DNA of 64,000 bases from Phytomonas francai (Eukaryota; Euglenozoa; Kinetoplastea; Trypanosomatida; Trypanosomatidae): contig MJCC01000001.1 in assembly GCA_001766655.1 (NCBI GenBank), positions 316,710-380,709 of the forward strand, written 5' to 3'. Under the pieces are notes generated by a model. The model did not search any database. It was not told the DNA's origin and worked only from the letters and a program-made list of their open reading frames with translations. This document shows, one piece after another, positions 6,485 through 64,000 of this stretch (within the stretch, counting starts at the first letter, position 1; every line of letters begins with the position of its first letter). The translations under genes were made by a program, and so were the position numbers.

Positions 6485-6757
6485 CACTTTTGAGGAAACG
6501 AGTGCGCCTAGTGTAACTGTTATCAAGACTAACCGAACCGTATTCTATAAGCCCGTTGAAGCTCTAAAAATATTTAATAAACATTAACCTAGTTGAGGCG
6601 TGTATGTTGTAATGCTTAATAGTTCACTCTTTCCACTTCAAATCGCTTGATACGTTTGTCGGATATTTCTGATTTTTTTTCCTGAATCCGTGCGTAATTG
6701 GGCTATACAGTACTCTCATTAGGTTGCTAAACAGTAGATTGGATATTCTTAGGGATT

Positions 6758-29963: not shown

Positions 29964-30606
29964 AATCATTTCCTTTTCCAATTTAACCAATCTTTTTTGA
30001 ATGAAAATCGTAATATATACATTGGAAAGGTAATTTAGTCCAATGATAATTGAATATGGTGCAAATAGTTTTTTTCGGAATATACACCAACAAAATGATA
30101 GATGCCATTTCAAAAGAAGAAAAAAACTTCTAATCAAGCTGATGAACGGGGGAAATTAATATTTTTATTTCGATGGTATTTTTGAACTTTCACAAACACG
30201 TAGACGAACTTTACAACCTGGGAGTGCACGTCAATGATGAGCAAAACGCATTATTGTTAAGTAAATAGAATATATTCGTTTAAAAATCTACCACCCTCTC
30301 TGTGCTGCATTATAGTAACAGTAGGTAGTAAGCAACAAAAAAGAGCAATTTTTTCGAAGGATTTCACACACACATTTTTCCTTTTCCCTTCCTCCTCCCG
30401 CACCCCCCACACACACACCTAGACCCACATCCCTCTTCAAACAGTTTTCAGTTGCTTCCCATAGAACGCTCGATTTGGAGCGGAGAGTGATTTCATTCGT
30501 CGCCTTATTTCCCCCTCAGTTTTTCCTTTTTTGAGGGGGGACTCGACGATTCTTGGTGTGTGGGGAGAGCAACCGAACGCGCCCCCTTGACGACCCCGGC
30601 GGCGCC
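29964..30606 (+). other. Intergenic spacer and GC-rich leader
   Basis: AT-rich spacer to about 30500, then a shift to GC-rich sequence that is open in frame with the next gene but lacks an ATG before 30607. No separate gene was recognised. Confidence 0.5.
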
Positions 30607-42163: not shown

Positions 42164-45100
42164 ATGGAAGTTCCCGATAGCGGAAAGATCTTCTGCGACG
42201 AAGAGTTCGACGAAAATAACGCTCAAATTTCGGAAGAATGGATTTCAATCCATGAACTCTACCCGCGCGGTATTAGTCAGCCTCTGCTCCCCGAGACCCT
42301 CTCGCGTGCGCAGTTTTCCCAGGGCAACCACTACGAGTGCTTCATCCTCTCCGCGTTATCTACGCTAGTGAGCCGCCACCCTGAGGTGATTCGCAACTGC
42401 TTTATCACGAAGACGCCGCGGCGGGACGGGCGGTACACCTTTCAGTTCTTCCGCGGGGATGCGTGGGTGCAGGTCGAGATCGACGACCGGATCCCGATGG
42501 AGGACGGTGAGACCCTCTACTGCCGCTCGCCGACGGAGCACTGGTGGCCGCTGCTGCTGGAGAAGGCCTACGCGAAGTTCTACACGTCGTACAGCAACCT
42601 CGATGGGTGCACGCTGCAGGAGGCCTACCACGACTTGACGGGCAACCCCGTGCTGAATATCCCCATGAACCCCAAGCTTGCCAAGGCTATCGGTGTAGAT
42701 GTCACAGAGGGCTCGTATTGGCTGGATCTATCTATGAAGATTAACAGCGGCTACTATGTGGCTTCAGTTCTGACCGAACGCAGAGATTTGGATCCTATTG
42801 GGATACAGAATGAGCAACATTACGGCCTTCTAGAGGTTCTATCCTTAACAGGAACCTCTTCCGTCAATGACATCGTTGTGCGTTTGTATAACCCTTTTGA
42901 AGAGTATGTGTACAAGGGGCCGCTTAATAGCAAGGACGAAAATTGGACAGATAAACAACGCGCCAAGTACAGGGTCGATGACCCACATTCCATTTTCTTG
43001 CCGTTGAGTATGTTCTTCAAGATCATAAACTCCTTTCAGCTCTGTTGCATGGCGGTGGAACCTCAGGCGACGTACTTCAGGGACAAATGGCGTGGCAAGA
43101 CGGCCGGCGGAAATCCGTCAAATGTGACGTGGCGTAAAAATCCCATCTACTTGATTCAAAACACAGCCTCCACTGATGCGGAGATTGTGGTTTCGATCAA
43201 GCAAGATGATCAGCGTCGCTTTATATTTCATGATGGACAAGATTATCTTCAGTGCGGCCTTGTTCTTCTCCATTATACTTACCGCAATCCAATTCCCACT
43301 TTCTGGATCACTACAAATAATCACAAGCCTACTCATAAGAGCCTGTTCTTTAAGTCACGTGAAGTTTCTCATCACTTCACCATTCCACCCAATATGTTGT
43401 GCTACTTGGTACCCTCAGCGATGCACAAGGGGGAGGAGTCGGAGTTCTTTCTGGCGATACACCGCATGCTCAACACGGAGTGCAGCGAATTGACGGTTGA
43501 GAAACTACATGTACCAGGGATTAATTGGGATAGTGATGTAAAAAAGGATCTGAAGCTGCGTCATGAGGAAAAAGGTCGCATCGACTTTTATGTGGACAAG
43601 GAGACCGACATTCATATCCTCTTGCATCACTTGAAATCACATGTAAATCCCCATACAGGTGGTGATGCCATGGTAGAGGACTATGTGGGCATGTATTTGT
43701 ACGACGACCGTGATGACCGGATTGCTGGAGTTCACGCCGCTACGAACTACCGCGAGACGAGCATCATCCATCATCTGCCTCGGAGTGGGCGCTACGCTAT
43801 TTTATTGACGTGCCCGCGTGGCAAAGACCATGTCCCCGTACGAGTTGTCATTGCTACCTCCTACGAATCTGACTCACGCATAGTCGACACGCCGGAGAAC
43901 GCCATTATGTTTGATGACGAGGACGAAATCATTGAAGAAGGCAATGGTGCTCTACAGGAACGTAATCCCATTGACTATTTCCCCGTGCCTTACGAAAAAC
44001 CTCGTCTGACTGAAGTCCCGGATAGCAACACCCCTTTTGAGGACCGCAGGTTCATGATGAAAAACGATATTACAAACGAGCCATGGGTGCACATCAGCGA
44101 CCTGTACCCCGGGGGCAGGAACCAGCCCCTCCTTCCAGGGACGCTGAGCCGCGACCAGTTTGAGCAGGGCGTGCACGACCAGTGCTGCTGCCTGACGGCA
44201 TTCGCGGCGCTTGTGGAGTACCACCCTGAGGTGATTCGCAACTGCTTTATCACGAAGACGCCGCGGCGGGACGGGCGATACACCTTTCAGTTCTTCCGCT
44301 ACGGTCAGTGGGTGAAGGTCGAGATCGACGACCGGATCCCGATGGCGGACGGTGCAACCATCTACTGCCGCTCGCCGACGGAGCACTGGTGGCCGCTGCT
44401 GCTGGAGAAGGCCTACGCGAAGTTCTACACGTCGTACAGCAACCTCGATGGGTGCACGCTGCAGGAGGTGCTACACGATTTCTCTGGTCAGCCAGTGATC
44501 AATATCCCCACTGATCCTGATCTTGCTAGCGAAATTTTCTGCGACATTAAGGACCCGAGTTTCTGGGTTGAACTTAATGAGAGCCTTCGGCGAACTCCTA
44601 TTACAGCCCTCACGAGGATCGGAATGCCTGAGCATTTTGGCTTGCATGACAACGATTCGTATGGTGTGCTTGGTTTTATTTTCCTTAATGATGTTTCTCA
44701 AATAGAGCTCTCCGATATTCTCGTAAAATTGTATAGTCCGTTTTCCGATACATCCTATATCGGGCCCATGAACGTGCGTGACACTAATTGGACGGAAGAC
44801 ATGCGTGCTATTTGTCAACCTGATGACAATCGTATCGTTTACATGCCAGTTCCCGTGTTTTGCGATGTCTTTCACAGTTTACAGCAGTTGTATGTAGAAG
44901 GTCCACTAGATTCTTACTTCAACTTTAACAGCGAGTGGGGTGATACTACAAGCGGTGGGAATCTAACGCTAACGACATGGCGCGAAAATCCGCTCTATTT
45001 GGTTCGTAACACGGCAGATGAGCCAGTGCAAATTATCGGGATGATTCGTCAGCCTGATAAGCGGAGCCGATTCCATTGCCTGACAAGCCAAGAGTTGAGC

Positions 45101-48100
45101 TACATCCAGTGTGGGCTAATTTTGGTGGAAAGCACTAACCGAGAACGCATCCCCACGTACTTGGTTACACCAAACAATCACTTGACTGTTCACAAGGGAC
45201 TTTTTTTAAACAGCAGAGAGGTGGCAAATATTATAACGGTCCCAGCTTCTTCCATGTGTTATCTCGTGCCTACCACAATGATAAAAACAAAGGGAAAGTT
45301 TATTCTGTCTTATTGGATTTTGAGCCATGACAACGCCAAGGCACTGAGTATTGAGCGTGTTAATGTAAAGGTGGCACGCCATCTACCCGCAATCACGCAC
45401 ATTGATCTTGGTAGCGGGAGGGAGCGCGTAGATTTCATCGTAGATGTCCCGACAGACATTCACATCCTTCTCAAGCAGGAACAAGCCTTTAAAATGGATA
45501 TGGGAGGTGATGTCATCGCCAAGGACTTTGTCGCGCTTTATTTGTACGACGAAGCTGACAAGCTGCTGTGCGGCGCAATGACTGCAATGAATTACCGCGA
45601 AAACGCTCTGGTACACCACCTGGCTGCTCCTGGGCGGTATGCACTGCTCATTACCTGTCCTGGAGCTCAAAGCCCCGTTCCATGCAAATTGGACATCGTT
45701 GCGCAGGAGGAGGCCCACGTCCGCATAACGGACCTCCCGGATCACGCCAAAGAGCTAATTGTGATCGAGCTGTCGTTCCTTGATCAGGAACCGATGGGTG
45801 TGCCACTCACGGATCTTCCATTGGATCAGGACCAAATCTTTCAGGAAGGATTGGAAAGTCTCAGGCAGATGTGCGGCTCGCAGAATCACGACCCGGACAG
45901 CATTGTTGATATGGAGAATCTCTTAAACGAGCGAGTCTATGAGCTAGCCAAGATGAAGATTGGAAGCCAGCGTGAGAAGTACTTGCCCAATCTTAATCTG
46001 AAAGAGTTGAATCTGTACCTAGACTCTAACCCAGATTACATGAAACTAGAAAGCATGCGCTATTTACTCATTAAGGATCCAAGAAGCACGGGCAAGTTGC
46101 GCAAGATTGAGAATATGTTGCATGATTTAGCTAACACTATCTCAGAGCGCACAGTGGGATTGGATCTTGCCTTTCTTCACACTAAGTACGAAAACATTCC
46201 CACAGGCTTCCTCCAGCTCATCTCTAATCCCGAATTTTATGAGTTGGCGCAAAAGCGTTCAGATTTAATGCAGGACCCCGCCCTTAATACTCTTGAAATT
46301 CTCAGACTCGAGGAAATCATGCACGCACGCGCTCGACAGATTTCCTTCGATATGCATAAACGGGAGCGGCACTATCTAGATCCGGTGCCGTGTTCGATTC
46401 CATTGCAACTGCTTCCCCTTAATGAGGACGAGGAGCTTTGCGCGATGGAGAGTCAGCTTCGATCACTGGATATAAGGTTACAAAAAAACGCCAATATGGT
46501 TGAAACATTAAGGATTTCGATCAGCAAACGTGTTCATGAAATCGCTAGAGCGTTGAAGGAGCGTCTGCGGAAGCAGTTCCTCGATCCAAAGCCGCTGGGG
46601 ATTCCGGTGGAGGATTTAGCACTTGACAGTGACTCACAATTTTATTCAAAGGAGTTGAGGCTAATTGTTTTCTATCTGAAGGACTCAGTTAATCATCAGG
46701 GCGAGATAACAGCTCTACAAAAGGAGCTTAATAAGCGTGCTGAAGAGTTGGCGCTAGCCTCAAAGACGGAGTTGCATGCATACCTTGACCCTGCGCCGTA
46801 CGGATTTCCTCTGGAGGCACTTGAGCTCGAGTCCAACAACGAGTACGTGACGCTCGAATCCCAACTACGCGTTTTGAAGCGTGATGTAAAGCAGAACGCC
46901 AGCGCGATTCATGAACTTCAGCGTACCATGAACGAGTTGGTGCGGGCTATCGCGTCCGCAAAAGCTGCTCAGGACCGCCAGTTCCTGGATTCTGAACCAG
47001 AGGGACGTGATCTGAGCAGCCTCCAATTGGATGAGGATCGGAAATTCATGCAGTTAGACGTCTTATGTCGCCAACTTCGATACAACCAAGGCGATCCAGC
47101 AGAGATAAAGAATAAGGAGGATGAGATGAACAGCTATGTGCATGCTCTAGCGTATCAGATGAATGTCAATGAGCGACCACAGTACCTACAGCCCACCTTC
47201 CGGAGCATACCATTTGAGGATCTTCCACTAGACGAAGATCCAGAATTCGTTTCGCTAGAAAAACAGCGTCAGGTGCAGAAAAGGGGCCCACAGCAAAATA
47301 CCCTGGCTATTGGCAAAACCGAGAAAAAGCTCAATGAACGCGCCATGGAACTTGCCAGGCGGCAGCTCGCCGCCGATCGCTCCTTTTTAGACCCAGAGCC
47401 GCAGGGCTTGCCGCTTCACCTTTTGCCCTTAGATTCAGACGAATATTTTTGCTCTTTAGAGGCGCAACGCGCGGGGTTGAAAAAAGGAGGACGGCGCAAT
47501 GCCAGGGCCATCGCGACTCTTGAGGAGCAGCTTAATCTTCACGTGCATCAGCTTATGCTGGAGCTGAAGGAGAAAGAGCGGGCCAAGTTTTTGCAGTCGC
47601 GGCCCATTGGCATCCCATATGGAGACCTTCCTTTGAATGAGGACAGGGAGTTCTGTGATATGGAGGTGCAACGTTTACTTTTGAAAGGGTCGTCTCGGGA
47701 AAACGCCAAAGCGATTCAGGCGCTTGAGGATGCCTTGAATGCGCATGCCCTTGAGTTGGCCAAGAAGAAGAAGCTAGAGGATCGTGCTTTCCTAAACTCG
47801 TGCCCGTTGGGTTTACCCCTGGAGGAGCTGGGGCTTGATTCGATTCCTGGGTTTCTTGAGAAGGAAGCAAGACTACGGGTGCTCCGACGGGAACCCGTAG
47901 ACAATGCCGCGGAGATCACTTCGTTGATGGAGGAGCTAGCCTCCATGGCAAAGCAAATTGCGGCTGAGGAGCTGGAAAAGCACCGCAACTTTCTTGATCC
48001 CAATCCGAAGGGCCGCCTTCTGAAAGAGCTTCCCCTTAACACGGACACGGTATTTCGCGATCTGGAGAATGAGTACCGAAGTTTAATGAAGTATCGCAAA

Positions 48101-51100
48101 CAGGAGTACCAAATGTTTGCGGATTTAGAGGAGCTAATGAACGAACGCACCTACGAACTTGCCAAGATGTTAAATGCTGCAGAGCGGGAAAACTATTTAA
48201 ATCCCAAACCAAGGGGTATCGCGCACCAGAATTTGCCTCTTGACGATGACCAGGAATTTTCAAAGCTGGAGGAGCAGCGTGCGCGTTTGTGTCGTTTTCC
48301 CGACAAAAACAAAAAAGCAATTGATGAGATTGAGCTCGCGCTGAACTTGCGTGCTGAGGAGATTGCTCAGGAGCAAATTGAGGCAGATCGCGGGTTTTTG
48401 GACACGGAGCCGGAGGGCATTCCTATCAAATACGTGCCTCTACACGAAAACGCGAAATTCTTCAAGTTGGAGGAGGAGCGAATGGCTCTTAAAACCCAAG
48501 GCATACTAGCAAACGATCACCTTATTCGTCAGATCGAAGACGAGATGAACCTTTATGCGCACGACATAGTCAAGTTCCTGAAGAAAAAGGTCCGAAAGGA
48601 TACTTTACCAGAGTTCCCAGGAGGTGTTAGCCGAGATATTCTCCCGCTAGATGATGACATACCGTACAGTGACCTTGAGATCGCTTTTATTCGAACACGA
48701 GGCGAGGGGGGGAACCCTGAGAAGGAGAAGAATCTGTTGGATGCCATGATTAAACGTGCCGCCGATCTGGCGTCCATGGTGCGTGAGGATGAACGTGCAC
48801 ACCTCAACATTCCGTTCGGCTTTTTACCGAGCGAATTACCACTCGATGAGTGTGAGCAGTACCTTGCCGTTGAGGCGGAGTTGTGTACGCTGCATGCCAA
48901 ACCCGACTCGGATCCACAAAAAATCGACGCCAAGGTAAATACGCTTAACGAATTAGTTTTTGGATTAGCAAAGGCCCAGGCTACGGTGGAGCGTCAGTTT
49001 CTCGATCAGGAGCCGGAGGGCCGTGCCTTGGAGGAGCTCAAGATAGACGAGGATGCGACCTTCGGTAAGCTCGAGGAGCAGTACCGCCGCGCGAAGAGGG
49101 ATCCGTACAGCGACCAGGAGGAGTTGTCATCCCTGGAGAAGGCCATGCGCGACCGGGTTTGCGAATTAGCCCATCAGAGGAACGCCGCCGAGCGCGCGAG
49201 CTACCTGAACCCGAGGCCGCACAATATTCCTCTTATGGAGTTGCCTCTTGACAGCGATGCGATCTTCATCGAGCTCGAGGTTCAGCGCGCGAAACTGTGC
49301 CGTGAGCCGACCTGGAACGAACAGGCGATTAAAATTATAGAGGATGCTCTGAATGAGCGCGCGATTCAATTAACGGAGGAGGCCATCAAGAAGGATCGCA
49401 TTTTCCTCAAAGACGAGCATGAGGGCTTGCCCCTGCGCCAGATACCCTTTGAGCAAGATAGCGTATTTTTACAGCTAGAGAAGAAACGCATGGCTCTGAA
49501 GAATAACCCCAAAGCCAACCGTGCGTTAATCCGAGACGTGGAGGAGCAGCTGAACGAGCAGGTTGGATTTTTGGCGCGTGAGTTGAAGGAGAAGTACCGC
49601 AAATTCTTGAACCAGAGTCCTTTAGGTATTCCCATTCAATATCTGCTACCTCGGATGGAGGAAGACCAACAGCTACGCGATCTGGAGGAGAAGTATCGTG
49701 ATGCAATGCAGGGTTCGTCGACGGAAAATGTCACCTCGCAGCTGCTTAATCAGATAAATGATCGCGTTCGCGAGATCGCACAGGCTGTGCACGAGGCTGA
49801 GCGGGACTTCTTGAACCAGGAGCCAGAGGGCATACCACTTTCTGCGCTCCCTCTTAACGAGGACAGGGCCTTTATCACGCTCGAAAACACGATTCGAAAG
49901 ATCAGCAAAGAGCGACCGAGAGATCCGCGCCTTGAAGAGCTGCGCACGGAGCTCGAGGATCGTGCCCGGAAGCTGGCGATTGAGTCTCGTAAGCAGTACT
50001 GTGATCCTTCGCCGTGTGGGCTTCCGCTGGAGCTTTTGGCGCTCAGCGAGGAGAAGGGCTTCATCGCGCTCGAGGCGCAGCTGCGGCGTCTGAAGCAGAA
50101 TCCGGTGGCGAATCGTCAAAAACTTAGCGAGCTGATGCGGCAGCTTAACGACAAACTCGCCGCGAAGGCCAAGGCGATGCTGGAGGGGGACCGGGGCTAC
50201 CTAAACAGTCAACCCGAGGGTGTCTCACTCGAATATATCGCCATCGATCAGGATGAAAAGTTCCACCAGATGGAGATACAGCGGCTGAAACTCAAGTCAG
50301 AGAGTGAGTTTTCCAACGCTAAGGCGATTCTAGAGCTAGAAATCAAGCTCAACGAGCGCGTTCACGAGCTGGCGAAGGAAATGAAAGAGAGAGAAATATC
50401 CGACTTGGGGCAGGATCCCATGGGTATTCCTTACAGCATTCTTAAGCCGCACGAGGACCCTGAATTTGCCACGATGGCTGGCCGGTTGCGTCTCCTGAAG
50501 CTAAAGCCATGCACCAACGCGGCTGCCATAAAGGAGCTGAAGGAGTCCATGAACGGGCGTGCGGTGCAGCTCGCGATGCTGAAACTCGAGGAAGAGCGCA
50601 CGCACCTGCGGCTGAGCGTTGAGGGCATCCCGCTCGCGAACCTGCCGCTGACGCCGGACCCCAAGTTCCACAAGTTGGAGTTGGAGCGCATCGCGCTCAA
50701 GTCCCTGGACCCTGCGCAGAGCGCGAAGCGGATTGAGGAGCTCGAGGCGCAGCTCGCGAATCGGGCTCACGAGTTGGCCGAGGCCCAGAAGCGCGAGGAC
50801 CTCTCGGGCCTCGACCCGAGCCCGGAGGGCGTCCCGCTCGCGATCCTGGACCCGCACGCCGATCCGACGTTCGCCGCCGACCTCCTCGCCCTGCGCGCGT
50901 TGCGGGCGAAGCCGCTCGCGAACAAGGCCGCGATCGAGGAGCTCAAGGCCCGCCTGCAGGCCCGCTGCCGCGAGCTCGCCTGCGAGCGTCTGGCGAAGGA
51001 ACGGGCGGCCTTCCTGCCGGCCGCCCCGCGCGGGGTCCCGCTCGAGCGCCTTCCGCTCGCGAGCGACCCCGCCTTCCGCGGGCTGGAGGCCGAGCGGCTC

Positions 51101-54100
51101 GCGCTCGCGTCCGCGGGGGGCGGGAGGCTCGCGCGTGAGCGGGCCGCGCTCGAGGAGCGCCTCCGCCGCCGCGCGGACGAGCTCGCGGGGCTGTGGGAGC
51201 TGCGCGAGGTCGAGGCCCTCGGCGACGCCGCGGCGGGCCTCCCCTGCGAGCTCCTGCGGCCGCACGACGACGCCGTCTTCGCCGGGATGGCCGCGCGGCT
51301 GCGGGCCGGCGTCGAAACCGAGGCCGAGGCCGAGGAGCTCCGCCGCGGGATGGCCGCGCGGCTGCGGGCCGGCGTCGAAACCGAGGCCGAGGCCGAGGAG
51401 CTCCGCCGCGGGATGGCCGCGCGGCTGCGGGAGCTCGTGGGGGCGGCGCGGCGGGCCGCGCGCGCGGAGTTTCTCGAGCCCGCCCCGCAGGGCGTGCCGC
51501 TGGGCGACCTCCCCCTCGACGCCGACGTCGGCTTCCGCGATCTCGAGTGCGAGCGGCTTCGCCTGCGCGCGCGGGGGCCGCCGTCGGACGCCCGCGTCCT
51601 GCGCGCGATCGAGGCGGAGCTGACGAACCGCGCGCACGCGATGGCGCTCGCGGCGATCGCGGTGGACCTCGGGGGGCTGACGGCCGACCTGCGCGACCTG
51701 CCGGCGGCCGCGCTTCGCCTCCACGACGACGCGGCCTTCCGCGCCCTCGCGGACGAGCGGCGGGCGCTTCGGGCCGACGCGGCGGCCGACCCCGCGCGCG
51801 TGGCCGCGGTCGCCGCCCGGATGGACGCCCGCGCGCGCGAGCTCGCCGACGCGGCGATGGACCGCGGCTACCTCGACGCCGACCCGCGGGGGGTCCCGCT
51901 CGCGATCCTCCCGCTCGACACCGACGCCCTCTTCCACGACATGGAGGTCGAGCACGCGAGGCTGCGCCTCAAGCGGCCGCCGCGGAACGAAAAGAAGCTC
52001 CGCGAGCTCGAGGAGCACCTCAACGAGCGCGCCTACGAGTTGGCCGCCATGCAGCTCGTCGAGGACTTGTCGGGGGTCGACCAGGCCCCCAAGGGCATCC
52101 CGCTCGAGCTGCTTAACCCCGCCAGCGACCCGACCATCGCCGCGATGATCCCCTCCCTGCGGGACCTCAAGAAGAGCCCCGATGCCAACGCGGGCGAAAT
52201 CAAGGCGCTCGAGGACCTCATGAACCAGCGGGTCTATCAGCTCGCCGACGAACTTTTGGACGGCGACCGCGACTACCTCGATCCGGAGCCGGCCGGCGTC
52301 CCGCTGCGCTATCTCCCCCTCGCCGAGGATATCGACTTCTCCACAAAGGAGGTCGAGCGCGCAAAGCTCAAGGCGAAGGGCCCCGTGCAAAATGCTCGAT
52401 CCATTCAGGAGCTCGAGTTCGCCCTGAACGAGCGCGTTCATCAGCTCGCCGAGCGACGAATAAAGGCGGAACTGGCCCTCTTCAAGCCCCATTACGAGGG
52501 CATCGACACGACCTCCCTGCGCCCACACCGCGATCCCATTTTTGCCCAACTCATCGTCCAGATGCGGGCGTTGGAGAGTGAGGGTAAGTCGAATGAAGCC
52601 AAAAAACTCCTACCGGAATTGGATGCCCGCCTGGAGGAACTGACCAAGGAGCAAAAAGAAGGTGACCTGTGGTTTCTCAAAAAGGAGTTCGCGGGCCTCA
52701 GCATCGAGGATGTGCCGTTTGACTCCGACGCTGAGTTTATCCAGTTAAATAATGAACGCATCGATCTTAAGGCGAGTAGTCCCCGGCAAAACATGCAGCG
52801 GATTCGTGATCTTGAGGACCAGATGAACCGTCGTGTCTGCGAGTTAGCGGGGGATATTCTCGACCACGACTTCGACGGCGTCGAGGGCAGCCCCTACGAT
52901 GTGCCGCTCAATTTGTTGAATCTGCGCGAGGACCCGAAGATTGCGCGAATTCTTCCCGAACTTCGTCGTGCGAAGCGTAGCGTTCGGAGCTCGAAGGCGG
53001 CCGAGGAGCTGCTGAAAAAACTCGTGGACCGCGTCGACGAGCTCGCGCGGATCGCCGTGCAGGGCGACCGTCCCGCGTACCTCGACCCCCGGCCCGGCGG
53101 CGTAATGCCGAAGGACCTCCCGCTCGATACCGACCCCGTTTTCCACGCCCTGGAGGCCGAGCGGGCGCGGCTGAAGCTGAGCCCTCCCGCCGAAAACACG
53201 ACCCGAATCGACGATTTCGAGGAGCGTCTCCGACAGCGAGCGCGGGAACTCGCAAAGGAGGTCATCGCGGGGGATCTCAAGAACTTGGACCAGACCCCGG
53301 GCGGCTTCCCCGTCGAGTTTATCAAGCCGCACGACAACGCCGACTTTAGCCAGCTCGCGCTATGGGCTCGCGAGCTCCGCCGAGACCCGAACTGTAGTAA
53401 GTACAAACTGAAGGAGTTGGAGGAAAAGATGAACGCACTGATTGCTGAAATGGCGGAGCAAACCGTGAGAAAGAATCGCGGTTTTCTGGATCCCGTTCCT
53501 GCCGCGATGTCGCTCGACGTACTTCCTCTTTCGGAGGATCCTGTCTTTCACAACTTGGAGATTCAAAGGGCGGTGCTCCAAACAAAAGATGCCCAAAAGA
53601 ATGCAGGCAAAATTGCGAAACTGGAGGCGAAGCTGAACGAGCGTTTTCATGAGCTCATCAAAGAGCAAAAACGCCGAGATTTGAGTATGCTCAACGAATG
53701 TCCGAATGGGGTGCCCTCGGCGCTGCTGAATCCACACGATCATGAGGAATTCGCCTCCTGCCTCGTCGAGCTGCGGCAACTGCAGAAGAACTACGCACAC
53801 CGCAGTGGCCCTCGGCTGGAAAATGTGCAGACCACGCTGAACGACTTGCTCAATCATCTTTCCATGGCGTACCTTGCCGAGGACCGTGCACGCTACCTGG
53901 ACCCCGACTCACAAGGCATCCCTCTAAACCTCCTCCCGCTTGACCACGATGCCAAGTTTAAGGCGCTCGAGAGTGAGCGATTAAATCTGATCCACAGCGA
54001 CCCGCAGGGAAGCAAGGACGCCATTTTGAACCTCGAGGCGTCTCTCAATGCACGCGCAAAGGAGCTCATGCAGGAGCTCCTGCGAAGCGATCGCGCCTAT

Positions 54101-57100
54101 CTCAATCCGAATCCGGAAGGCATACCGCTCTCCGCTCTCCCGCTTGATGCCGATCGCGTCTTTGTGGATCTTGAAAGTCGACGGCTCATGCTCAAGTTGA
54201 AAGACCCAATCAAAAACTCTTCGGAGATCTACGAGTTGGAGGTTCAGCTGAACGATCGCCTGGTTCAGATTGCTCAGGATAAAGTCGAGGAAGAACTTCG
54301 TTTCATCGACGAGTGCGTGGAGGACATCCCGGTGGCGATGCTTCAACCATACAACGATGCTCAGTTTCTGCGTGCGATGAATACCCTGCGGGGAATGAAG
54401 AAGGATGACCCCAACACCGATTCCCAGCGAATGAAAATCATGCAGGACGCCAAGAATCGCGTTCATCAGCTGGCGAGCGCTGCGCTTCGGGGTCATCGTC
54501 GTATCTATTTAGACCCCAATCCGAGGGGTGTGAGCCTCAACAGCATCCCTCTCGATAGCGATCCGTCCTTTCACCAGATGGAGGTGGAGCTTGCGAAGCT
54601 GAAGCTGAAGAAATCGTATCAAGACCGGACGAGGATTGCCGACCTCGAAGGACGACTTAATGAACGGGCGTATGAATTGGCCAGCAAGATTCTGGAGGAC
54701 GACTTGGTGGGGCTGTATGACAGGCCATTTGGCGTCCCTGTAAAGATTTTGGACCCCCATAAAGATGCAAAATTCAGCTCGCTGGTGCTTCAACGGCGTC
54801 ATGCTCCTGCGAAGGACGCAAACTCTTCGCATGAGTCTTCCATGGTAAGTCTTCTGAATCAGCGCCTGGAGGAGTTGGCGAAGGAATTGCTGGTTCGGGA
54901 CCGCGCGTCGTTTTTGGAGTTCAATCCCTCCGGGACGCCATTGTTTCTCCTGCCCTTGGACACCGACGCCGAGTTTCACGAGATGGAGGTGGAGCGTCTG
55001 CGGCTGAAGGCGGAGGACCCCGGCATGCACAGGATCCAAATCTCCAATCTCGAGCAATCCCTCTGCGATCGCGCCCGCGAGCTGGCAAAAGAGGTACTTT
55101 CCTATGACCGTGGCTATCTAGCCCCCGTTCCCTGCAATATTAGGATTTCGGAGCTTCCTTTGGACACCGATGTGCTCTTTCACAAGATGGAGATCGAACG
55201 CGCGAAACTGGTCGCGCAGGACTCGCAGAGGAATGCGAGTCAAATCGCCAGGCTCGAGAACAACCTCAACGACCGTGCGTACGAGCTCGCCCTGAAGCAG
55301 CTGGATGAGGACTTGGAGGGGTTGGATCCGAAACCACGCGGCATCCCGATTGAATCCCTCAACCTACACACCCATCCCGAGTTCAGCGCCTACCTGCCCG
55401 AGCTGCGTAAACTCAAACTGAACCCATCGCTGAACGCGCCAAAAATCAAGGATCTTCACGCCAGGATGGACATGTGCGTCGACGGCCTGGCAAGACAGGA
55501 GATTGATGAGCTGCGTTCCTTTTTGGGGGCGCATCTCGAGGGCGTGAACCTTGCCCAGTTTTCCCTCGATAGCGATAAGACCTATACCGACCTTGAGGAG
55601 AATCTGCTTCTCCTCCTCTACGGCCCCTCCCCGGACGATGAAAAGATTAGCTCTCTGAAAGAGCAGATGATCGGCCGCGTTCGTGAGCTGGTGCGCGAGA
55701 AGATCCAGCGGGATCGCGGGTATTTGGATTCGGAGGTGGATGGGGTCTTCATTGCGTTTCTCCCCCTGAATACGGACGAGCGCTTTTGCAAACTGGAGGC
55801 GACGCGCGCGAAGCTGCGCGCGGACCCCCACGCGAACGCCGAGGCGATTTCGACTATCGAGGACCAACTGAGAGACCGCGTACGCGAGCTGGTCCTTGAA
55901 CGGAAGCATACCGACCGCGCCTTCCTCAACGAGACCTCGCACGGCATCCCTAAGAAGTACTTACCCTTCGAAACCGATATCGCGTTCAGGAAAATGGAGC
56001 AGCAGCTCCGTCGACTCAAGCAGTACCCTCATCGAAATGCGGCGGCGATAGAAAAAATTCAGTCTTTGATGCAGGACTCCGCCGATGAGTTGGGTGAGAT
56101 GATCCTCAAAGGCAACCGCGATTATTATTTAGATCCCGCACCGGAGGGCATTCCCATTATGGAGCTGCAGCTCGACAACGACCCAACCTACCACGAAATG
56201 GAGGTAAAATATGCTCTACGCAGGACGGATGGGGTGCTAGACGATGCAGATGAAATGACCGCCTTGAAGAGGGCGCTTAACAAGCGAGCTCACGAGCTTG
56301 CAAAGGAGCAGAGAGCGAGGGAACGAGCCTTCTTAGATCGGACACCAGAACGCATTCCCATCGAGGATATACCGCTCGATTCGGACCCCAATTTCCTGCG
56401 CATGGAAGACTACCTCCGGACCCTCAGGAAAGATCCACGCCATAATAAAGCGGTGATTAAAGAAACCGAGGAAAGAATGCAACACTGGCTCCACGAACTA
56501 GCTAAAGGGATTCTGTTAAAAGACCTTGCTTGCTTGCCGGCGACCAAGTACCGCGGCATACCGAGGGAGTTCCTCAATTTGCATGAGAACAAAAAATTCA
56601 GAAGCTTGGCTGATAAACGCCGCGCTGCGTTGAAAGAGGAAGAAGACTTAGCTCAGATCCAGTCCATTGAGGGAGAAATGGATGCGATTGCCGTGGGGGT
56701 CGCGAACGAACTAATTGCTGCCGGGCGAGCCTTTCTCGGAAAGGTCATCGAGGGCATGTCCGTTAGTGATCTGCCGCTGGATGATGACAAGGAATTCCTC
56801 GCTCTTGAGGCAGAGCGGTACCGCCACACCAGAAGCCAGCAATTTTCCAAGAACAACGAAACCATCCTTCACGATCTGGAGGGGCGGATGTTCGATCGCG
56901 TGAACCATTTGGTAAAGGAAGAGTTCACCAAGATGCGTGGGACCCTGGACCAGGAGCCGGAGGGCCTGCCTCTCAGTCAGGTCCCGCTTGACTACGACCA
57001 TGAGTTCAAAGAGGCTGAGATCACGCGCTATAGGCTAATGAAGGAGCCGAATCCAGACTTAAGGAGGATTGCAGAGCTTGAGAAACGCATGAACGACCGC

Positions 57101-60100
57101 GCACGCGAACTGGCGAGTAAGGAGCTGGCGAAGGACCAGAGTTTCCTTAATCCGGTGCCTCTGGGGGTAGCCCTCTCATGTCTTCCTCTTCGGAGCGATC
57201 CCTATTTCAACGAGCTAGCGAGACAGCGGCAGGCGCACAAGAAGACGAACCAGCGTAACCCGGAGGCTTTGCGCAAACTAGAGGATCAGATGAACGACCG
57301 CGCGTACAAGCTTGCGCAGGAGTACCTTAACCGTAACCGCGAATACCTCGACCCCTACCCGCAGAACGTGCCCCTCGAGGACCTTCCACTCAACCGGGAC
57401 CCCATCTTCCGCGATATGGAGAATGAGCTGCTTAGGATGAAGAAAGACGCCATGACGAATCAAGATGCCATTTTCAAACAACAGGATGACCTTCGCAAAC
57501 GCACTGAGGAGCTTGCACTGGAGTTGCTGCGCAAGGAGAGGGCTTTGCAGGATCAGGCGCCGCTCGGTGTGCCGCTGGACGAGCTGCCTTTGAACTATGA
57601 CCCCTTCTTAAACGCGTTGGAGCGTAAGCGACGTTATGAGAATCAGAATCCAAAACCGAACTCCGAGACTCTTTTTAGAATAGGAGAGGAGATTGAAAAA
57701 CGGGTTCTTGAAATCGCTGAGGATTATTTGAGCAAGGAACGGGCTTTCTTGGATCGAAACCTCAGCGACATCCCACTCTCCAGCTTGCCGCTAAACACCG
57801 ACCGCGACTTCTTGAAGATGGAGAGGGAGCTGCGGACGATGAAGAAGCAGCCAGTGAAGAACAAAGTCGCTATAGAGGATTTTATGGAGCGCATGCACGA
57901 ACGTGTCCAGGCGCTCGTGCAGGAGCAGCTTCAAAGTGACCGAAAGTTCCTAGATCCCGAGCCCCTTGGTGTTCCTTTAGCGATCTTGCCACTGAATCAT
58001 GATTTCACCTTCAAATCACTGGAAAACCAGCGTCGGACGCTTATGAAAGATGTTCTACCCGACATGAAGAAGGTTTCCATCTTGGAAAAGCAGCTCAATG
58101 ACCGCGCCCATGAGCTTGCGCAGGTGCTACTTGACGAGGGGCGCGCATTCCTGCCGCAGATCATACAGGGTGTGCCGCTGCAGGAACTGTGCTTGAACAA
58201 AGATAGGGCGTTTCGATCAATGGAGAAGCAGATGTGGAAGCTCAAAAATGATCCGGGCAATTATGTCTTGACGATCGAGGAATTGAAACGAAAGATGGAG
58301 AAGCGTGTGGTGGGGCTTGCTAAGCGCTACATAATGGATGGGCTCGTTCATTTAAGTCCCGAGATTCTGGGGGTACAACTGACGGAGTTGAATTTATCTA
58401 CAAACCCGGATTTTCTCAAGTTGGAGCAGGCCTGCGCCAAGGCAAAGCGGGATTCCAACATGAAGGATCTCGAAAAGCTAGAGCATGAGCTTAACGAACT
58501 CGTAAAGTGCATTGCTAGGGAGTTTCTTAAACATGAGCGTTCCTTCCTCGAACAGGAGACGGAAGGGGTCCCGTTGGATTCCCTCCCGTTGGACCGCGAC
58601 GCGGAGTTCCGCGTGCTGGAGACGGACTACCGCCGACTGAGCAAGGACCGGTTCACAAACGCCCGGACCCTCGAGTGGCTCAAGTACGCCATGGCCCAGC
58701 GGGTCCGCGATCTGGCGCGGCTGCGAAAAGGCTACGAGGACCCGGACTTCCACGCCGCGAACGCGTGCGTGGCCGAGGAGTGGCGCCACATCCACGACCT
58801 CTTCCCCGACTGCGTGCGCAGGGGGCTGCTGCCGGAGCGCACGCACCCGTCCGACGTGTGCGCGGTGGCGGGGGGGGCGGCGTCCGTCCTCGCGCCCGTC
58901 CTGGCGGGGCTCGCGCGGCACCCGGTGCTGCTCGCGCGGCTGATCCTCGAGGCCCCGAGCGGGCGCGGGCAGCCCTTCCGCGTCATGCTCTTCGACGCCG
59001 CCGGGGGGGCCGTCCCTGTCGCCGTGGACGGCCGCGTGCCGTGCGAGGCGGGGGGCCGCCCGGCCTTCCTGCGCGTCCCGCCCCGCGCGGCCTATGCGCT
59101 GCTGCTCGAGAAGGCCTACGCGAAGTTCGTCGGGGGCTACCGCGCGCTGCGGACCCGCCACGCCCACNNNNNNNNNNNNNNNNNNNNNNNNNNNNNNNNN
59201 NNNNNNNNNNNNNNNNNNNNNNNNNNNNNNNNNNNNNNNNNNNNNNNNNNNNNNNNNNNNNNNNNNNNNNNNNNNNNNNNNNNNNNNNNNNNGCCGGGTT
59301 CTGCCGCCGCCTCGCGCGCGGCCTCCGCGAGGGCGACGTCGTCGTCGCGATCGCCGGCCCCGAGGCCGGCGACGGCTTCCGCGCCCGCGCGGCCTACCCC
59401 CTCCTCGACGTCCTCGGCCACGATTCCGACGCGGCGGACGGCCTCGCGCTGCGTTTGCTCGACTGCCAGCCCGACGGGGCCGCCGACGGCGCGGCGCGCG
59501 AGCGGGTCGTGCCGCTGCCGACCTTCCTCGCCCACTTCGCGAGCCTCCAGCGCTGCCGGGTGAACTGCGGGGACCGGCTGAGCGCGCCGGGCGCCTGGAC
59601 GGCCGAGAGCGCCGGCGGCACCGCGCGCTTCACCACCTTCCGCCGGAACCCCGCCTACCTCGTCGAGAACCACGGCGTGCGGGCCGCGACGATACTCGCG
59701 GAGCTCCGCCACGGGGCGCCGATGGGCGGGGCCGACGGGGAGGGCGAGCGGTACCCCTTCACGGGCATCGCCCTCCTCCAGCCCCTCGACCCGAAGCTCC
59801 CGCCGACGCCCTTCGTGACGGCCGCCACGCACCGCTCCCTCCGCAAGGGGCTCATGCTCGACGCGCGCGATGTCTGCGTCGAGATGGAGCTCCCGCCGAG
59901 CTCCGTCGGGTATCTGATCCCCTTCACCAAACAGCGCGGCACCCTCGGAAGGTTCACCCTCTCCATCTACCCCGGGCTCTCCGACGTCACCTTGACGCCG
60001 ATACGCCACGCGGGGCTCACGTTTACCCCGCTCCACTGTCTACTTACTGTCCCGAACGACGGCGCCGAGGCGCGGGTTGATTTTTCGCTCGATCGTGTGT

Positions 60101-60501: not shown

Positions 60502-60511
60502 GAAGACGCAT

Positions 60512-60531
60512 GGGGGGGGGGGGGGGGGGGG
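60512..60531 (+). repeat. Poly(G) run of 20 just after the calpain stop
   Basis: Twenty consecutive G bases starting 10 bases after the TGA. It could be a G-quadruplex former in the 3' UTR or a length-inexact sequencing feature. Confidence 0.9.
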
Positions 60532-62410
60532 AATAAAAAAGAAGAGGAACGGTTCTCTCTTTTTTTTGTTATCCATCTCCATGGAATTAACCATCGGTTG
60601 ACCGTACCAAAAAATTTGAACCCTCGCAGGTTTTGCACATTTTTTCAATAGTGCTATGTTTTTTTTTTGTATGTGTCATTTTTTACTCTATTTTTACTTT
60701 AGAGCATGTTAACTTGTTGATTCAATTCCATAGGTGAGGTATGACTTTGTTTACCTCTTGCAGTTGTTTATTATTATCATTTTATTTTAAGATATTCAGA
60801 TCTTAGCTTTGTATTGTTGAAATCATACGTTAATAGGGAGAAGTGGGGAGTGAATGAAGAGAATTAAAATTTAAAGAGATCAACATTAAGCGAGAGAAAC
60901 CGTTTCCTATATCCTCCAAGCTGGTAAATTGATAATCTTTTAGCCTTTATTCCTTTTTTTCTATAATAATAAAAAAACAGAAACTAATATATTTATAAAA
61001 TGAATCGCTATTTTTGTATGAAGGCTAAATAAAAACCGTTCATGTGGTTTGAAACTATGTGATTTTGTTGATTTCGAACTGATTTCTTTTCTTTTTTTTT
61101 TTCCAGGAAAAGTATATGTAACCATTAAATTATACATACATACATATATGTATAATATTCCCTTTTCACCTTTTGGAAGAGGTTCATCAATGTTGCGCTA
61201 TTTTATCAGAAAAAGAATTATATATTGCTTTGTATAAATAGCATTAAAGACAAGCAACAATATGTTTTCTGTTAAATGCTTTGAGCTCCATTATTTATTA
61301 ACGTAATGGACGATATAACTGCACATCATCAAATATCTTATTTTATACAGTTAATTTTGCTCAAATGTGCAGCTGGATTTGATTCATGCTATACTATTAC
61401 ACGAGTAAGAGATATATATTCTAACGCCCATAGCTGTAGAATTATGCTAAAATAGATACTTAGGATACCTAGTGAAGTGATGGCAGGTAAACCAGGGAAC
61501 AATAATAACCAAAAAAGCATCATCAAGTTTGGGGAGACTATGATGGTTGACTTCTTTTTTCGTGATTTTGAGAACTTGACCCACAATAATGGCTGTGAAA
61601 GATCAAAATGAGAAGGTTTGTCAAATAGAACTTTTAAATTTTGGCCTTCTTTATCCTTGGGTAGGGATTTTTAAAGGGAGACCAATTTTTACTACTTTTT
61701 TTTCTACCTTTTCAGTACAAAAATGCCTCGTACGGCTTACACATCATTTTTTTAAGATTTTTTTGTGCCCTCATTTAGGAGGAAGCTTGTTAACTCGTTT
61801 GAAGGTATTTTAATCAGGACAATTACCTTTTTTTTAAAAGGACAAAATGTCAAACATGCATTTATTACTATTTATTTTTACTATCCTTTATTTTCATAGT
61901 GGATTGTTAGGTTTCTTTTTCTATTCATTTCAGTTTTTCTTCTATAAGGGTTAGGGAAACGAGTTGAAATCATTTTTACTACCTATTACTTTTGTTTTTT
62001 TTTATATAAGCTTTTTTTATCATGATTTCGTAATGCGTTGAGTTTTAAACTACATTGTTTCTCCATAATAGGGGTTATTATAAAGGCATTTCAAAAATAT
62101 ACAAATAACTATAACGAATAAAGATACATTTGACAAGTTATTTTACATTTAACGAAAAGGGGCGATCGTAAAAGGGGATGATACTATTTACATGTATAAT
62201 ACTTTTTCATCAGAAGTCCTTACTGAGAGGCTCAAAAGAATAAAAGTTTATTGAACCAGATCATAGAGGGGAAATCTGTCATCCATCGTTTTTTTTACCT
62301 GTACTAGTCTTTCCTTAAATTCCATGTTCAAAAAACATCCACCATTTTGTAATGTTTAAGGATTTTAGCGTACCTATAAATACGAACTGAAAACATTTTT
62401 AACTATTGAT

Positions 62411-62433
62411 CTCTTTTTTTCTCTCTCTTGTAG
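62411..62433 (+). promoter_or_regulatory. Candidate trans-splice acceptor of the second calpain gene
   Basis: A continuous pyrimidine tract of about 20 bases ends in GTAG (TAG at 62431-62433), about 200 bases before the ATG at 62637. It is the cleanest acceptor-like site near the calpain genes. Confidence 0.6.
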
Positions 62434-62636
62434 GTTTCGACTGACTTAAGAAGAAAAAGTCAAGTTCCATATTACTAAAGCCTCTTTATTTAGTGATCTT
62501 AAGCTTTCTTAAATGCTCTGCTTATTCTTTATCAACATTACAGCTACACGTATACACACTATCTAAATAATAACAGAAAGCCAACTTTCAGAAAAGTTAA
62601 CATTTTCTCATAAAGGTGTCCCAAACGGCGTCCATA

Positions 62637-64000
62637 ATGGAAGTTCCCGATAGCGGAAAGATCTTCTGCGACGAAGAGTTCGGCGAAAATAACGCTCAAA
62701 TTTCGGAAGAATGGATTTCAATCCATGAACTCTACCCGCGCGGTATTAGTCAGCCTCTGCTCCCCGAGACCCTCTCGCGTGCGCAGTTTTCCCAGGGCAA
62801 CCACTACGAGTGCTTCATCCTCTCCGCGTTATCTACGCTAGTGAGCCGCCACCCTGAGGTGATTCGCAACTGCTTTATCACGAAGACGCCGCGGCGGGAC
62901 GGGCGGTACACCTTTCAGTTCTTCCGCGGGGATGCGTGGGTGCAGGTCGAGATCGACGACCGGATCCCGATGGAGGACGGTGAGACCCTCTACTGCCGCT
63001 CGCCGACGGAGCACTGGTGGCCGCTGCTGCTGGAGAAGGCCTACGCGAAGTTCTACACGTCGTACAGCAACCTCGATGGGTGCACGCTGCAGGAGGCCTA
63101 CCACGACTTGACGGGCAACCCCGTGCTGAATATCCCCATGAACCCCAAGCTTGCCAAGGCTATCGGTGTAGATGTTGTAAGCGCTAGCTACTGGATGAGT
63201 ATCGGATATTCTCTGACGCAGGGAGAATATATCGCTTCGATGCTCACAAATGCAGCTGCTGAAGATTTAGGAATGCAGAATGACCAAGTGTACGCAATTC
63301 TTGGTATTTATTCAATGGAACCACTCAGTTCCACTGCTCTGGAGGATATATTTATACAGCTTTACAACCCCTTTGAGGCTGATGAATACACAGGCTCATT
63401 GAACCCCAAGGATCCCTTATGGACACAAGAGTTGATTGATAATTATGGTGTAGGTGATCATAATTTAATCTTTATCCCATTGAACCTTTTTTCGAGAATA
63501 TGCCTATCCTTTCAGCTCTGTTGCATGGCGGTGGAACCTCAGGCGACGTACCTTAGGGACGAATGGCGTGGCGAGACGGCCGGCGGAAATCCGTCAAATG
63601 CGACGTGGCGTAAAAATCCCATCTATTTGATTCAAAACACAGCCTCCACTGATGCGGAGATTGTGGTTTCGATCAAGCAAGATGATCAGCGTCGCACTGC
63701 CGATCCAGAACAAAGTGCCAAATACATCCAGTGTGGCTTTATATTTCTTCGCCCTACTTTCTCTAAACCTCTGCCAACCCTTTTCCTTACCAGCAACAAT
63801 CATCAGCCGATCTTCAAAAGCCTTTTCCTTAATTCACGGGATATGTCCGGCATAATTACAGTTCCATCGTATTCTATGTGCTACTTGGTACCCTCAGCGA
63901 TGCACAAGGGGGAGGAGTCGGAGTTCTTTCTGGCGATACACCGCATGCTCAACACGGAGTGCAGCGAATTGACGGTTGAAAAACTACATGTACCAGGGAT
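62637..64000 (+). CDS. Second calpain-like gene, 3' end outside window
   Basis: An open frame from the ATG at 62637 to the window edge (about 454 residues) equivalent to module 1 of the giant calpain gene. It begins MEVPDSGKIFCDEEFGENN and keeps the Cys (HYECFIL, codon at 62811) and the Asn (LYNPFEA), but the His position reads Val (NDQVYAILGI, codon at 63288), so this module is predicted inactive. It is a patchwork: 62637-63175 differs from 42164-42702 by one base, then a diverged stretch, a near-identical block 63507-63695, another diverged stretch, and near identity again from 63877. Whether it also carries the repeat array cannot be seen. It makes the locus a tandem calpain array. Confidence 0.9.
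   Translation, partial: MEVPDSGKIFCDEEFGENNAQISEEWISIHELYPRGISQPLLPETLSRAQFSQGNHYECFILSALSTLVSRHPEVIRNCFITKTPRRDGRYTFQFFRGDAWVQVEIDDRIPMEDGETLYCRSPTEHWWPLLLEKAYAKFYTSYSNLDGCTLQEAYHDLTGNPVLNIPMNPKLAKAIGVDVVSASYWMSIGYSLTQGEYIASMLTNAAAEDLGMQNDQVYAILGIYSMEPLSSTALEDIFIQLYNPFEADEYTGSLNPKDPLWTQELIDNYGVGDHNLIFIPLNLFSRICLSFQLCCMAVEPQATYLRDEWRGETAGGNPSNATWRKNPIYLIQNTASTDAEIVVSIKQDDQRRTADPEQSAKYIQCGFIFLRPTFSKPLPTLFLTSNNHQPIFKSLFLNSRDMSGIITVPSYSMCYLVPSAMHKGEESEFFLAIHRMLNTECSELTVEKLHVPG

What the first reader, a model, noticed from the sequence alone, without database searches (positions are those of the whole stretch)
62637..64000. Second calpain gene is a mosaic of near-identical and diverged blocks relative to the first
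Seen directly: 62637-63175 matches 42164-42702 with a single difference (62683 G for 42210 A); 63507-63695 matches 43031-43219 with six differences; 63877-64000 matches 43398-43521 with one. Between these blocks the two genes share only scattered protein similarity. Identity begins exactly at the ATG. Block edges are abrupt and offsets shift by three bases at each, so the diverged stretches differ by whole codons. This is the pattern of repeated gene conversion between tandem paralogues, with selected segments, including the His region, escaping it or being diversified.
Basis: partly seen in the sequence, partly recalled or inferred. Interest (0 to 1): 0.75.

Follow-up and report, generated by a model that had tools for sequence, protein, structure and literature searches.

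The report
Gene conversion between giant tandem calpains
Two neighbouring giant calpain-like genes of a relative of the plant parasite Phytomonas have repeatedly overwritten parts of each other while other parts stay different, and protein comparisons suggest that partly the same stretches are overwritten in Leishmania and Leptomonas too.

Summary
The genes are tandem giant calpain-like proteins with two calpain domains, then a DUF7623 repeat array. They share five near-identical blocks (gene 1 codons 1-179, 290-352, 413-457, 469-594, 616-778) with 4 synonymous differences in about 378 sites; elsewhere synonymous sites are saturated (about 342 in 437). Upstream flanks are unrelated up to the ATG. 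Repeated ectopic gene conversion is the best explanation.

(2) Partly the same segments are homogenised between paralogues in Leishmania and Leptomonas, at protein level. (3) Two left-out segments, most of PC2 and of the first beta-sandwich of domain one, are the best conserved parts in gene 1's orthologue group, suggesting selection keeps paralogues distinct there; the long diverged segment downstream is not.

Partial conversion in trypanosomatid tandem arrays is known (PMC1855330), so this is a clean new member of a known kind.

The parts
42164..59562 (+). Gene 1 (g1): giant calpain-like protein, open frame of 5799 aa as assembled; 125-N gap at 59168-59292, frame after the gap unresolved (an open frame continues to about 60501)
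   Evidence: Pfam Peptidase_C2 (2 stretches) and Calpain_III; 24 DUF7623 stretches in 45764-50500
62637..64000 (+). Gene 2 (g2): 5' part of the tandem paralogue; the full gene is G000:C11:379346-393184, 4612 aa, no N inside
42164..42700 (+). Block B1 in g1 (codons 1-179; PC1 half-domain plus about 18 residues of PC2)
   Evidence: 0 synonymous differences in 118.7 sites; domain map
62637..63173 (+). Block B1 in g2
42701..43030 (+). Diverged segment D1 in g1 (most of PC2, with the His and Asn columns); pS 0.82 against g2
63174..63506 (+). Diverged segment D1 in g2
43031..43219 (+). Block B2 in g1 (end of PC2, start of first beta-sandwich); 6 base differences, more than in the other blocks
63507..63695 (+). 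Block B2 in g2
43220..43399 (+). Diverged segment D2 in g1 (most of first beta-sandwich); pS 0.79
63696..63878 (+). Diverged segment D2 in g2
43400..43534 (+). Block B3 in g1
63879..64000 (+). Block B3 in g2, within the window (runs to 64013 equivalent)
43568..43945 (+). Block B4 in g1 (second beta-sandwich), 126 of 126 codons identical to g2 (64047-64424 equivalent, outside the window)
44009..44497 (+). Block B5 in g1 (PC1 of the second calpain domain), 161 of 163 codons identical to g2 (64491-64979 equivalent, outside the window)
42380..42634 (+). Interdomain conversion core in the first calpain domain of g1 (codons 73-157): pS about 0.09 to the second domain, GC3 78/85
44222..44479 (+). Interdomain conversion core in the second calpain domain of g1 (codons 687-772), GC3 75/86
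62853..63107 (+). Interdomain conversion core in the first calpain domain of g2 (codons 73-157)

Best explanation
The two genes are tandem paralogues of a giant calpain-like cytoskeletal protein family (H49/GM6-like), older than the split of this organism from Phytomonas EM1 and Hart1 and probably older than the split from Leishmania. Ectopic gene conversion, most simply mis-templated repair between sister chromatids or homologues, repeatedly copies segments between them, and earlier also between the first and second calpain domains. Tracts end where homology ends (at the ATG, because the flanks are unrelated) and where the paralogues are too different. Two of the left-out segments, most of PC2 and of the first beta-sandwich in domain one, differ between paralogues but are highly conserved within gene 1's orthologue group, so I infer that conversions covering them are selected out. 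Shown: near-zero synonymous divergence in blocks against saturation outside, discordant trees, unequal block ages, interdomain conversion, GC3 enrichment of the four-copy core. Shown at protein level only: partly the same blocks in Leishmania and Leptomonas. Inferred: the molecular mechanism, GC-biased repair, selection against conversion in PC2, the cytoskeletal role.
For: Blocks: 4 synonymous differences in about 378 sites; elsewhere about 342 in 437. Upstream flanks unrelated. Block B2 more diverged than the other four together (Fisher p 0.0002). Interdomain core, codons 73-157: 5.3 synonymous differences in 57 sites, against pS 0.67-0.89 in the other segments of g1 domain one against two. 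B4+B5 tree: g1+g2 100/100, L. tarentolae a+b 100/99, Leptomonas a+b 100/98; AU tests reject clades of a, of b, g1+a and g2+b (largest p 4.0e-5). Diverged-segment tree: g1 with a-orthologues (82/88), g2 with b-orthologues (94/97). Downstream segment with EM1 and Hart1: g1+EM1 and g2+Hart1 each 100/100. Best within-species paralogue identity exceeds mean Leptomonas-Leishmania orthologue identity by 0.06-0.35 at residues 41-160 and 481-760, by 0.04 and 0.06 in two other 40-aa windows, and is lower in the rest. GC3 of the core 153/171 against 309/612 in diverged segments, p 2e-22.
Against: Only one assembly and no reads were available. The nearest genomes (EM1, Hart1) have gene models that begin inside or after the block region, so block identity between paralogues could not be seen in a second Phytomonas. 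Deep orthology of g1 and g2 is moderately supported: the branches joining g1 to a and g2 to b fall short of the tool's threshold, the AU test of {g1,g2} gives p 0.049 and of {g1,EM1,g2,Hart1} p 0.114, so duplication within the Phytomonas lineage is not excluded. By plain identity g2's downstream segment shows no preference for a, b or c of Leptomonas (40, 39, 40%). Outside this genome the evidence is protein only, partly from draft or partial models. The paralogue-orthologue comparison sets the best of three paralogue pairs against a mean, which favours the paralogues; by means alone B5 stays above (0.88 against 0.78-0.83) but B4 does not (0.83 against 0.81-0.84), because only the a/b pair is converted there. 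T. cruzi and T. theileri pairs are alike over a different extent, PC2 included, and their overlap with the window's blocks is not beyond chance (0.16 and 0.35 of shifts). B2 and B3 are not homogenised in Leishmaniinae and the B4-B5 linker is, so boundaries recur only in part.
Confidence: 0.86

Rival explanations
1. Assembly artefact: one set of block sequences was copied into both loci, or contigs were joined wrongly at shared k-mers.
For: The assembly has N gaps, one in the 3' part of gene 1, and beside another gap 129 bp is repeated exactly on both sides, so local duplication by assembly may happen here. Block B4 is identical in both genes.
Against: No N lies in 42164-59167, 59293-64000 or g2. 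Four of the five blocks are not exact copies (1, 6, 1 and 2 base differences; B4 none), and B2 is significantly more diverged. A k-mer mis-join swaps flanks; it does not make five alternating in-frame blocks with both alternatives of every diverged segment. In the diverged segments g1 is nearest to Leptomonas a in D1, D2 and D5, g2 nearest to b in D1 and D2, and trees agree. Past B5, g2 runs into sequence that Hart1, a separate genome project, also has after the same motif. Comparable mosaics occur in other species' proteins.
Confidence: 0.07
2. Recent duplication followed by replacement or very fast divergence of selected segments, rather than old paralogues homogenised in blocks.
For: AU tests do not firmly reject g1 and g2 as sisters in the diverged segments (p 0.049; p 0.114 for the four Phytomonas rows); g2 is on a long branch.
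Against: Diverged segments are saturated at synonymous as well as heavily changed at nonsynonymous sites, which selection on the protein would not do in the time the blocks took to gain 4 synonymous changes. g1 pairs with EM1 and g2 with Hart1 at 100/100, so the two genes predate that split. Upstream flanks are unrelated.
Confidence: 0.05
3. Purifying selection alone keeps the blocks alike.
For: PC1 and the second beta-sandwich are well conserved across the family.
Against: Near-zero synonymous divergence in g1/g2. In four Leishmaniinae sets the best paralogue pair averages 0.98 (B4) and 0.94 (B5) where Leptomonas-Leishmania orthologues have 0.78-0.84.
Confidence: 0.01
4. Conversion with a homology threshold only: faster-evolving parts drift out of reach of conversion and selection plays no part in which segments are left out. 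This rival concerns the cause of the pattern, not conversion itself, so its odds stand beside those of the best explanation.
For: Proposed in general for trypanosomatid arrays in PMC1855330 (section 11 read). Fits the unrelated flanks, the fast g2 lineage, and the long downstream segment D5, which in the a group (0.80) is no better conserved than the blocks.
Against: In the a group the excluded segments D1 and D2 are the best conserved between Leptomonas and Leishmania (0.97 and 0.95) and blocks B1, B4 and B5 less so (0.89, 0.84, 0.83). In b and c the contrast is weaker or reversed (D1 0.72 and 0.82, D2 0.56 and 0.84).
Confidence: 0.35

Closest known systems
Partial gene conversion in Trypanosoma brucei tandem arrays (PMC1855330; passages and section 11 read)
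   Same: Tandem duplicates, chimaeric copies (21 of 47 arrays in that paper), elevated GC3 in its invariant arrays, less conserved parts of genes suggested to escape conversion.
   Different: The word calpain does not occur in its main text. Here two old, distinct giant genes show five alternating tracts, an added interdomain layer, and partly the same tracts in other genera.
H49/calpain of Trypanosoma cruzi (PMC3214072; abstract and passages)
   Same: Two CysPc copies in the N-terminal region, 68-aa repeat array, domains II-III at the C-terminus, altered catalytic triad; homogenising recombination suggested for its repeats.
   Different: That paper invokes unequal crossing over or conversion for the repeats; here blastn finds only one 72-bp match at 82% between the repeat arrays, and it is the calpain domains that are homogenised.
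ClpGM6 of T. brucei (PMC4827413; passages)
   Same: Giant calpain-like protein (over 660 kDa) of the flagellum attachment zone; its depletion shortens flagellum attachment and changes cell form. Likely the same family, by my reading.
   Different: Nothing is known of location or knock-down in this organism; conversion is not discussed in the passages seen.

Membership tests
Giant calpain-like proteins of trypanosomatids (H49/GM6 type) | Two N-terminal CysPc domains | tested here: met
   Peptidase_C2 with 2 stretches in each gene; fold model of g1 1-615 matches m-calpain, E 2.8e-22
Giant calpain-like proteins of trypanosomatids (H49/GM6 type) | Long array of about 68-aa repeats | tested here: met
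   DUF7623: 24 stretches in the scanned part of g1 and 9 in the scanned part of g2
Giant calpain-like proteins of trypanosomatids (H49/GM6 type) | C-terminal CysPc plus domain III | tested here: met
   g2: Peptidase_C2 and Calpain_III at the C-terminus; g1 only in pieces around an N gap
Giant calpain-like proteins of trypanosomatids (H49/GM6 type) | Location at the flagellum attachment zone | not testable with these tools
   No imaging data
Catalytically active calpain | Cys-His-Asn triad | tested here: not met
   First domain of both genes: Cys and Asn kept, His column is Gln; second domain: Asp (g1) and Gln (g2) in that column (residues, register)
Gene conversion between tandem paralogues | Synonymous divergence in blocks far below that outside | tested here: met
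   4/378 against about 342/437
Gene conversion between tandem paralogues | Conflicting trees for blocks and flanks | tested here: met
   the placement of g1 and g2 in the flank trees is only moderately supported
Gene conversion between tandem paralogues | Blocks confirmed in single long reads or other isolates | not testable with these tools
   No reads, one assembly

The most novel reading that the evidence does not exclude
Across trypanosomatids the PC1 halves and the second beta-sandwich of the tandem giant calpains are kept nearly identical within each species, by recurrent conversion among up to six domain copies, because the paralogues co-assemble in one cytoskeletal structure through these modules, while PC2 gives each paralogue its identity. 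The locus would then be an exchange system between shared and private modules, maintained since before Leishmania and Leptomonas split and marked by a GC-biased repair footprint.
Probability: 0.17. Interest if true: 0.65.

Novelty: new member of a known kind. Interest (0 to 1): 0.45.

Why it matters
A giant calpain-like protein of this type, ClpGM6, affects flagellum attachment and cell form in T. brucei (PMC4827413, passages). If partly the same modules are overwritten in one species after another while others are kept apart, the locus gives a natural test of which parts of a pseudoprotease are interchangeable and which give a paralogue its role. It also warns that calpain family trees built on whole CysPc domains mix two histories, and that assemblies without long reads may break or collapse here.

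Tried and rejected
First I tabulated the residue aligned at g1 H219 as the catalytic His and thought g1 had kept a Cys-His-Asn triad. The alignment to human m-calpain puts the catalytic His column one residue earlier (Q218, two before the conserved Tyr), so I dropped that idea.

Donors elsewhere in the genome: a protein search with the first calpain domain gave 12 matches, 7 of them at this locus; the other five are 32-36% identical over 86-111 aa. A DNA search with the first block gave 4 matches, all at this locus. Both tools score only their best candidates, so these are lower bounds. As a control I took one other tandem calpain pair (contig C33, 671 and 683 aa): 37% identical in protein and no plus-strand blastn match between them at E 1e-3, so not every tandem calpain pair here is converted.

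The segmentation also called one 5-codon 'block' (codons 921-925); I did not count it. A fold model of g1 1-615 (pLDDT 87) with the m-calpain alignment places PC1 to about 161, PC2 about 162-297 and two beta-sandwiches after (my reading of the secondary structure). Block edges follow the PC1/PC2 boundary closely only in the second domain (B5 ends at 778); B1 runs about 18 residues into PC2. NCBIfam gave nothing for the two N-terminal parts.

Papers: nine searches listed, by title and start of abstract, no paper on gene conversion between calpain domains or genes; long lists were seen only in part. PMC3214072 names conversion as one possibility for its repeats. By term search of the main text, 'conversion' does not occur in PMC7912814 or PMC3563603, and occurs once, about autolysis, in PMC6759280. 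PMC4413820 was searched for terms only. This is absence in an open-access library only.

Full report
WHAT IS THERE. The window lies at G000:C11:316710-380709 of a 17.4-Mb, 37-contig genome. Among the proteins returned, those most alike are Phytomonas sp. EM1 for g1 and Phytomonas sp. Hart1 for g2; over their full overlap g1/EM1 is 71% identical (4753 positions) and g2/Hart1 71% (3881 positions). The organism is therefore a Phytomonas-like trypanosomatid; the species is not known to me. Gene 1 (g1, 42164-59562 as assembled) and gene 2 (g2, 62637 onward, C11:379346-393184, 4612 aa) are tandem on the same strand. Both have two N-terminal calpain protease domains (Peptidase_C2, two stretches each) with Calpain_III, a DUF7623 repeat array and, seen whole in g2, a C-terminal Peptidase_C2/Calpain_III unit. 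This is the architecture described for H49/calpain (PMC3214072, abstract and passages).

OBSERVATION. A two-state segmentation of the codon alignment gives five blocks: g1 codons 1-179, 290-352, 413-457, 469-594, 616-778 (plus one 5-codon call at 921-925 that I do not count). Synonymous differences per site (Nei-Gojobori) are 0/118.7, 2/41.7, 1/27.3, 0/82.7 and 1/107.8, together 4/378. In the six diverged stretches they are 56.7/69.2, 30.5/38.8, 4/6.5, 8.7/15.3, 72.7/92.3 and 169.4/215.2, together about 342/437. The longest run of identical codons is 163; in 10,000 shuffles the maximum was 23. The sequence upstream of the ATGs is unrelated. After codon 778 blastn finds one more between-gene match, 72 bp at 82% in the repeat arrays.

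MORE THAN ONE EVENT. Block B2 has 6 differences in 189 bases against 4 in 1539 for the other four blocks (Fisher p 0.0002), so it was probably last homogenised earlier. A second layer links the two calpain domains within each gene: codons 73-157 of the first domain differ from the second by about 5.3 synonymous changes in 57 sites (pS 0.08-0.10), while the other segments of g1 have pS 0.67-0.89. At protein level residues 73-98 and 118-150 are 96-97% identical between the two domains in g1 and g2, against 62-85% in the 26 other family members aligned.

GC FOOTPRINT. The four-copy core has GC3 153/171 in g1, against 309/612 in the diverged segments D1, D2 and D5 (p 2e-22; fourfold sites 69/77 against 120/264, p 7e-13). 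Blocks exchanged only between genes (B2-B4) are barely raised, 140/234 (p 0.017); the stretch of B5 before the core is raised too (56/71), that of B1 less (47/72). This fits GC-biased repair where most copies exchange, but composition alone does not prove it: other sharp GC-rich islands, for which I sought no conversion partner, exist in the window. PMC1855330 reports elevated GC3 in its invariant T. brucei arrays (section 11).

RELATIVES. From 45 proteins returned I took 28 for alignment with g1 and g2; the rest were strain duplicates, truncated or more distant entries, or not needed. Three orthologue groups appear in Leishmaniinae (a, b, c). Trees of the diverged segments (25 rows; 22 rows) put g1 with a (82/88) and g2 with b (94/97), both short of the tool's star. 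The AU test against {g1,g2} is marginal (p 0.049). On the downstream segment alone with EM1 and Hart1 added (24 rows), g1+EM1 and g2+Hart1 are 100/100, and {g1,EM1,g2,Hart1} as one clade is not rejected (p 0.114). So the two genes predate the split from EM1 and Hart1, and probably, not certainly, the split from Leishmania. In the B4+B5 tree (22 rows) g1+g2 are 100/100, L. tarentolae a+b 100/99, Leptomonas a+b 100/98; clades of a, of b, g1+a and g2+b are all rejected (largest p 4.0e-5). Rows of the 30-row alignment left out: EM1, Hart1, L. major b and c, L. mexicana c, these and L. mexicana b, L. Namibia a, T. melophagium a, L. major b and c, L. mexicana b and c, L. Namibia a, T. melophagium a. 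One 'species' set mixes L. donovani (a) with L. infantum (b, c); the second T. theileri row and some others are partial models.

RECURRENCE. In four Leishmaniinae sets the best paralogue identity exceeds the mean Leptomonas-Leishmania orthologue identity at residues 41-160 and 481-760 (by 0.06-0.35 in 40-aa windows); two other windows are +0.04 and +0.06, and the remaining windows are negative. Best-of-three against a mean favours the paralogues; by means over all pairs B5 is still above orthologues (0.88 against 0.78-0.83), B1 about level (0.89 against 0.80-0.89) and B4 level (0.83 against 0.81-0.84), because in B4 only the a/b pair is alike (0.98-0.99). These regions are, roughly, blocks B1, B4 and B5 of the window's pair. 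B2 and B3 are not homogenised there, and the linker between B4 and B5 is (a/b 100%) although it is diverged in g1/g2. Overlap of identity tracts with the window's blocks, as fraction of circular shifts reaching it: Leptomonas 0.023, L. tarentolae 0.022, L. braziliensis 0.049, L. donovani/infantum 0.009, T. cruzi 0.16, T. theileri 0.35; four lineages (Phytomonas-like, Leptomonas, L. tarentolae, T. cruzi) jointly p 0.0008. The tract criterion also picks up conserved stretches between orthologues (same call), so and the trees are the better evidence. Trypanosoma pairs are alike over a different extent, PC2 included.

WHAT IS LEFT OUT. By alignment to human m-calpain and a fold model (pLDDT 87, pTM 0.85; best PDB match m-calpain, E 2.8e-22), B1 is PC1 plus about 18 residues; D1 is most of PC2; D2 most of the first beta-sandwich; B4 the second beta-sandwich; B5 the PC1 of the second domain, ending near its PC1/PC2 boundary. 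In the a group D1 and D2 are the best conserved parts between Leptomonas and Leishmania (0.97, 0.95) against 0.89, 0.84 and 0.83 for B1, B4 and B5. The other large excluded segment, D5, is not (0.80), and in b and c the contrast is weaker or reversed (D1 0.72 and 0.82; D2 0.56 and 0.84). So in gene 1's group D1 and D2 are not simply fast-evolving; I infer selection against overwriting them, while D5 may just be out of reach. The catalytic His column is Gln in all 28 first domains and Cys and Asn are kept there (register), so protection of proteolysis is unlikely to be the reason.

CONTROL AND ARTEFACT. One other tandem calpain pair in the same genome (C33) shows 37% protein identity and no nucleotide block. 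The assembly has N gaps and one exact 129-bp repeat around a gap, so caution is right, but there is no N inside the block region of either gene, four of the five blocks are not exact copies, and five alternating in-frame tracts with orthologue-consistent flanks are not what a mis-join gives.

VERDICT. Gene conversion, repeated, between genes and between domains: confidence 0.86. A known kind (PMC1855330), an unusually clear case, with a likely wider pattern that is shown here at protein level only.

Noticed in passing
window 50551-52150 and 58551-60000 (inside gene 1); also 1-500, 1851-2800, 6751-7450, 22951-23300, 30501-31400, 33401-34650, 38901-39300: Sharp GC-rich islands (0.35-1.6 kb, peak GC 0.69-0.86, most flanks 0.38-0.59). 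In gene 1, codons 2801-3400 have GC3 0.89-0.98; at 2901-3300 the Gly/Ala/Arg/Pro content is 0.43-0.53 against 0.26-0.46 in the EM1 orthologue and identity to EM1 drops to 0.47-0.60 from about 0.70-0.81 on either side; codons 5501-5668 behave alike. Looks like local GC-biased hotspots that drive protein change.
   Followed up: partly
window 51283-51431: Perfect 86-bp overlapping direct repeat with a 63-base shift (21 codons) inside the GC-rich island of the gene 1 repeat array; the EM1 orthologue has an 18-residue alignment gap there.
   Followed up: no
window 36917-38167: Vasohibin-family gene, E 2.3e-50, two genes upstream of gene 1; that vasohibins are tubulin carboxypeptidases is recalled, not from a call.
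   Followed up: no
L022 638-766 and 1378-1506 (G000:C33): Identical 129-bp sequences on both sides of an N gap, probably a scaffolding artefact of this assembly.
   Followed up: no
Phytomonas Hart1 protein P0035, residues 1-11: Its model starts in the second calpain domain with MEEGETVYCRSP-like letters, closer to the first domain of g1/g2 than to their second, hinting at interdomain conversion in Hart1 too.
   Followed up: no
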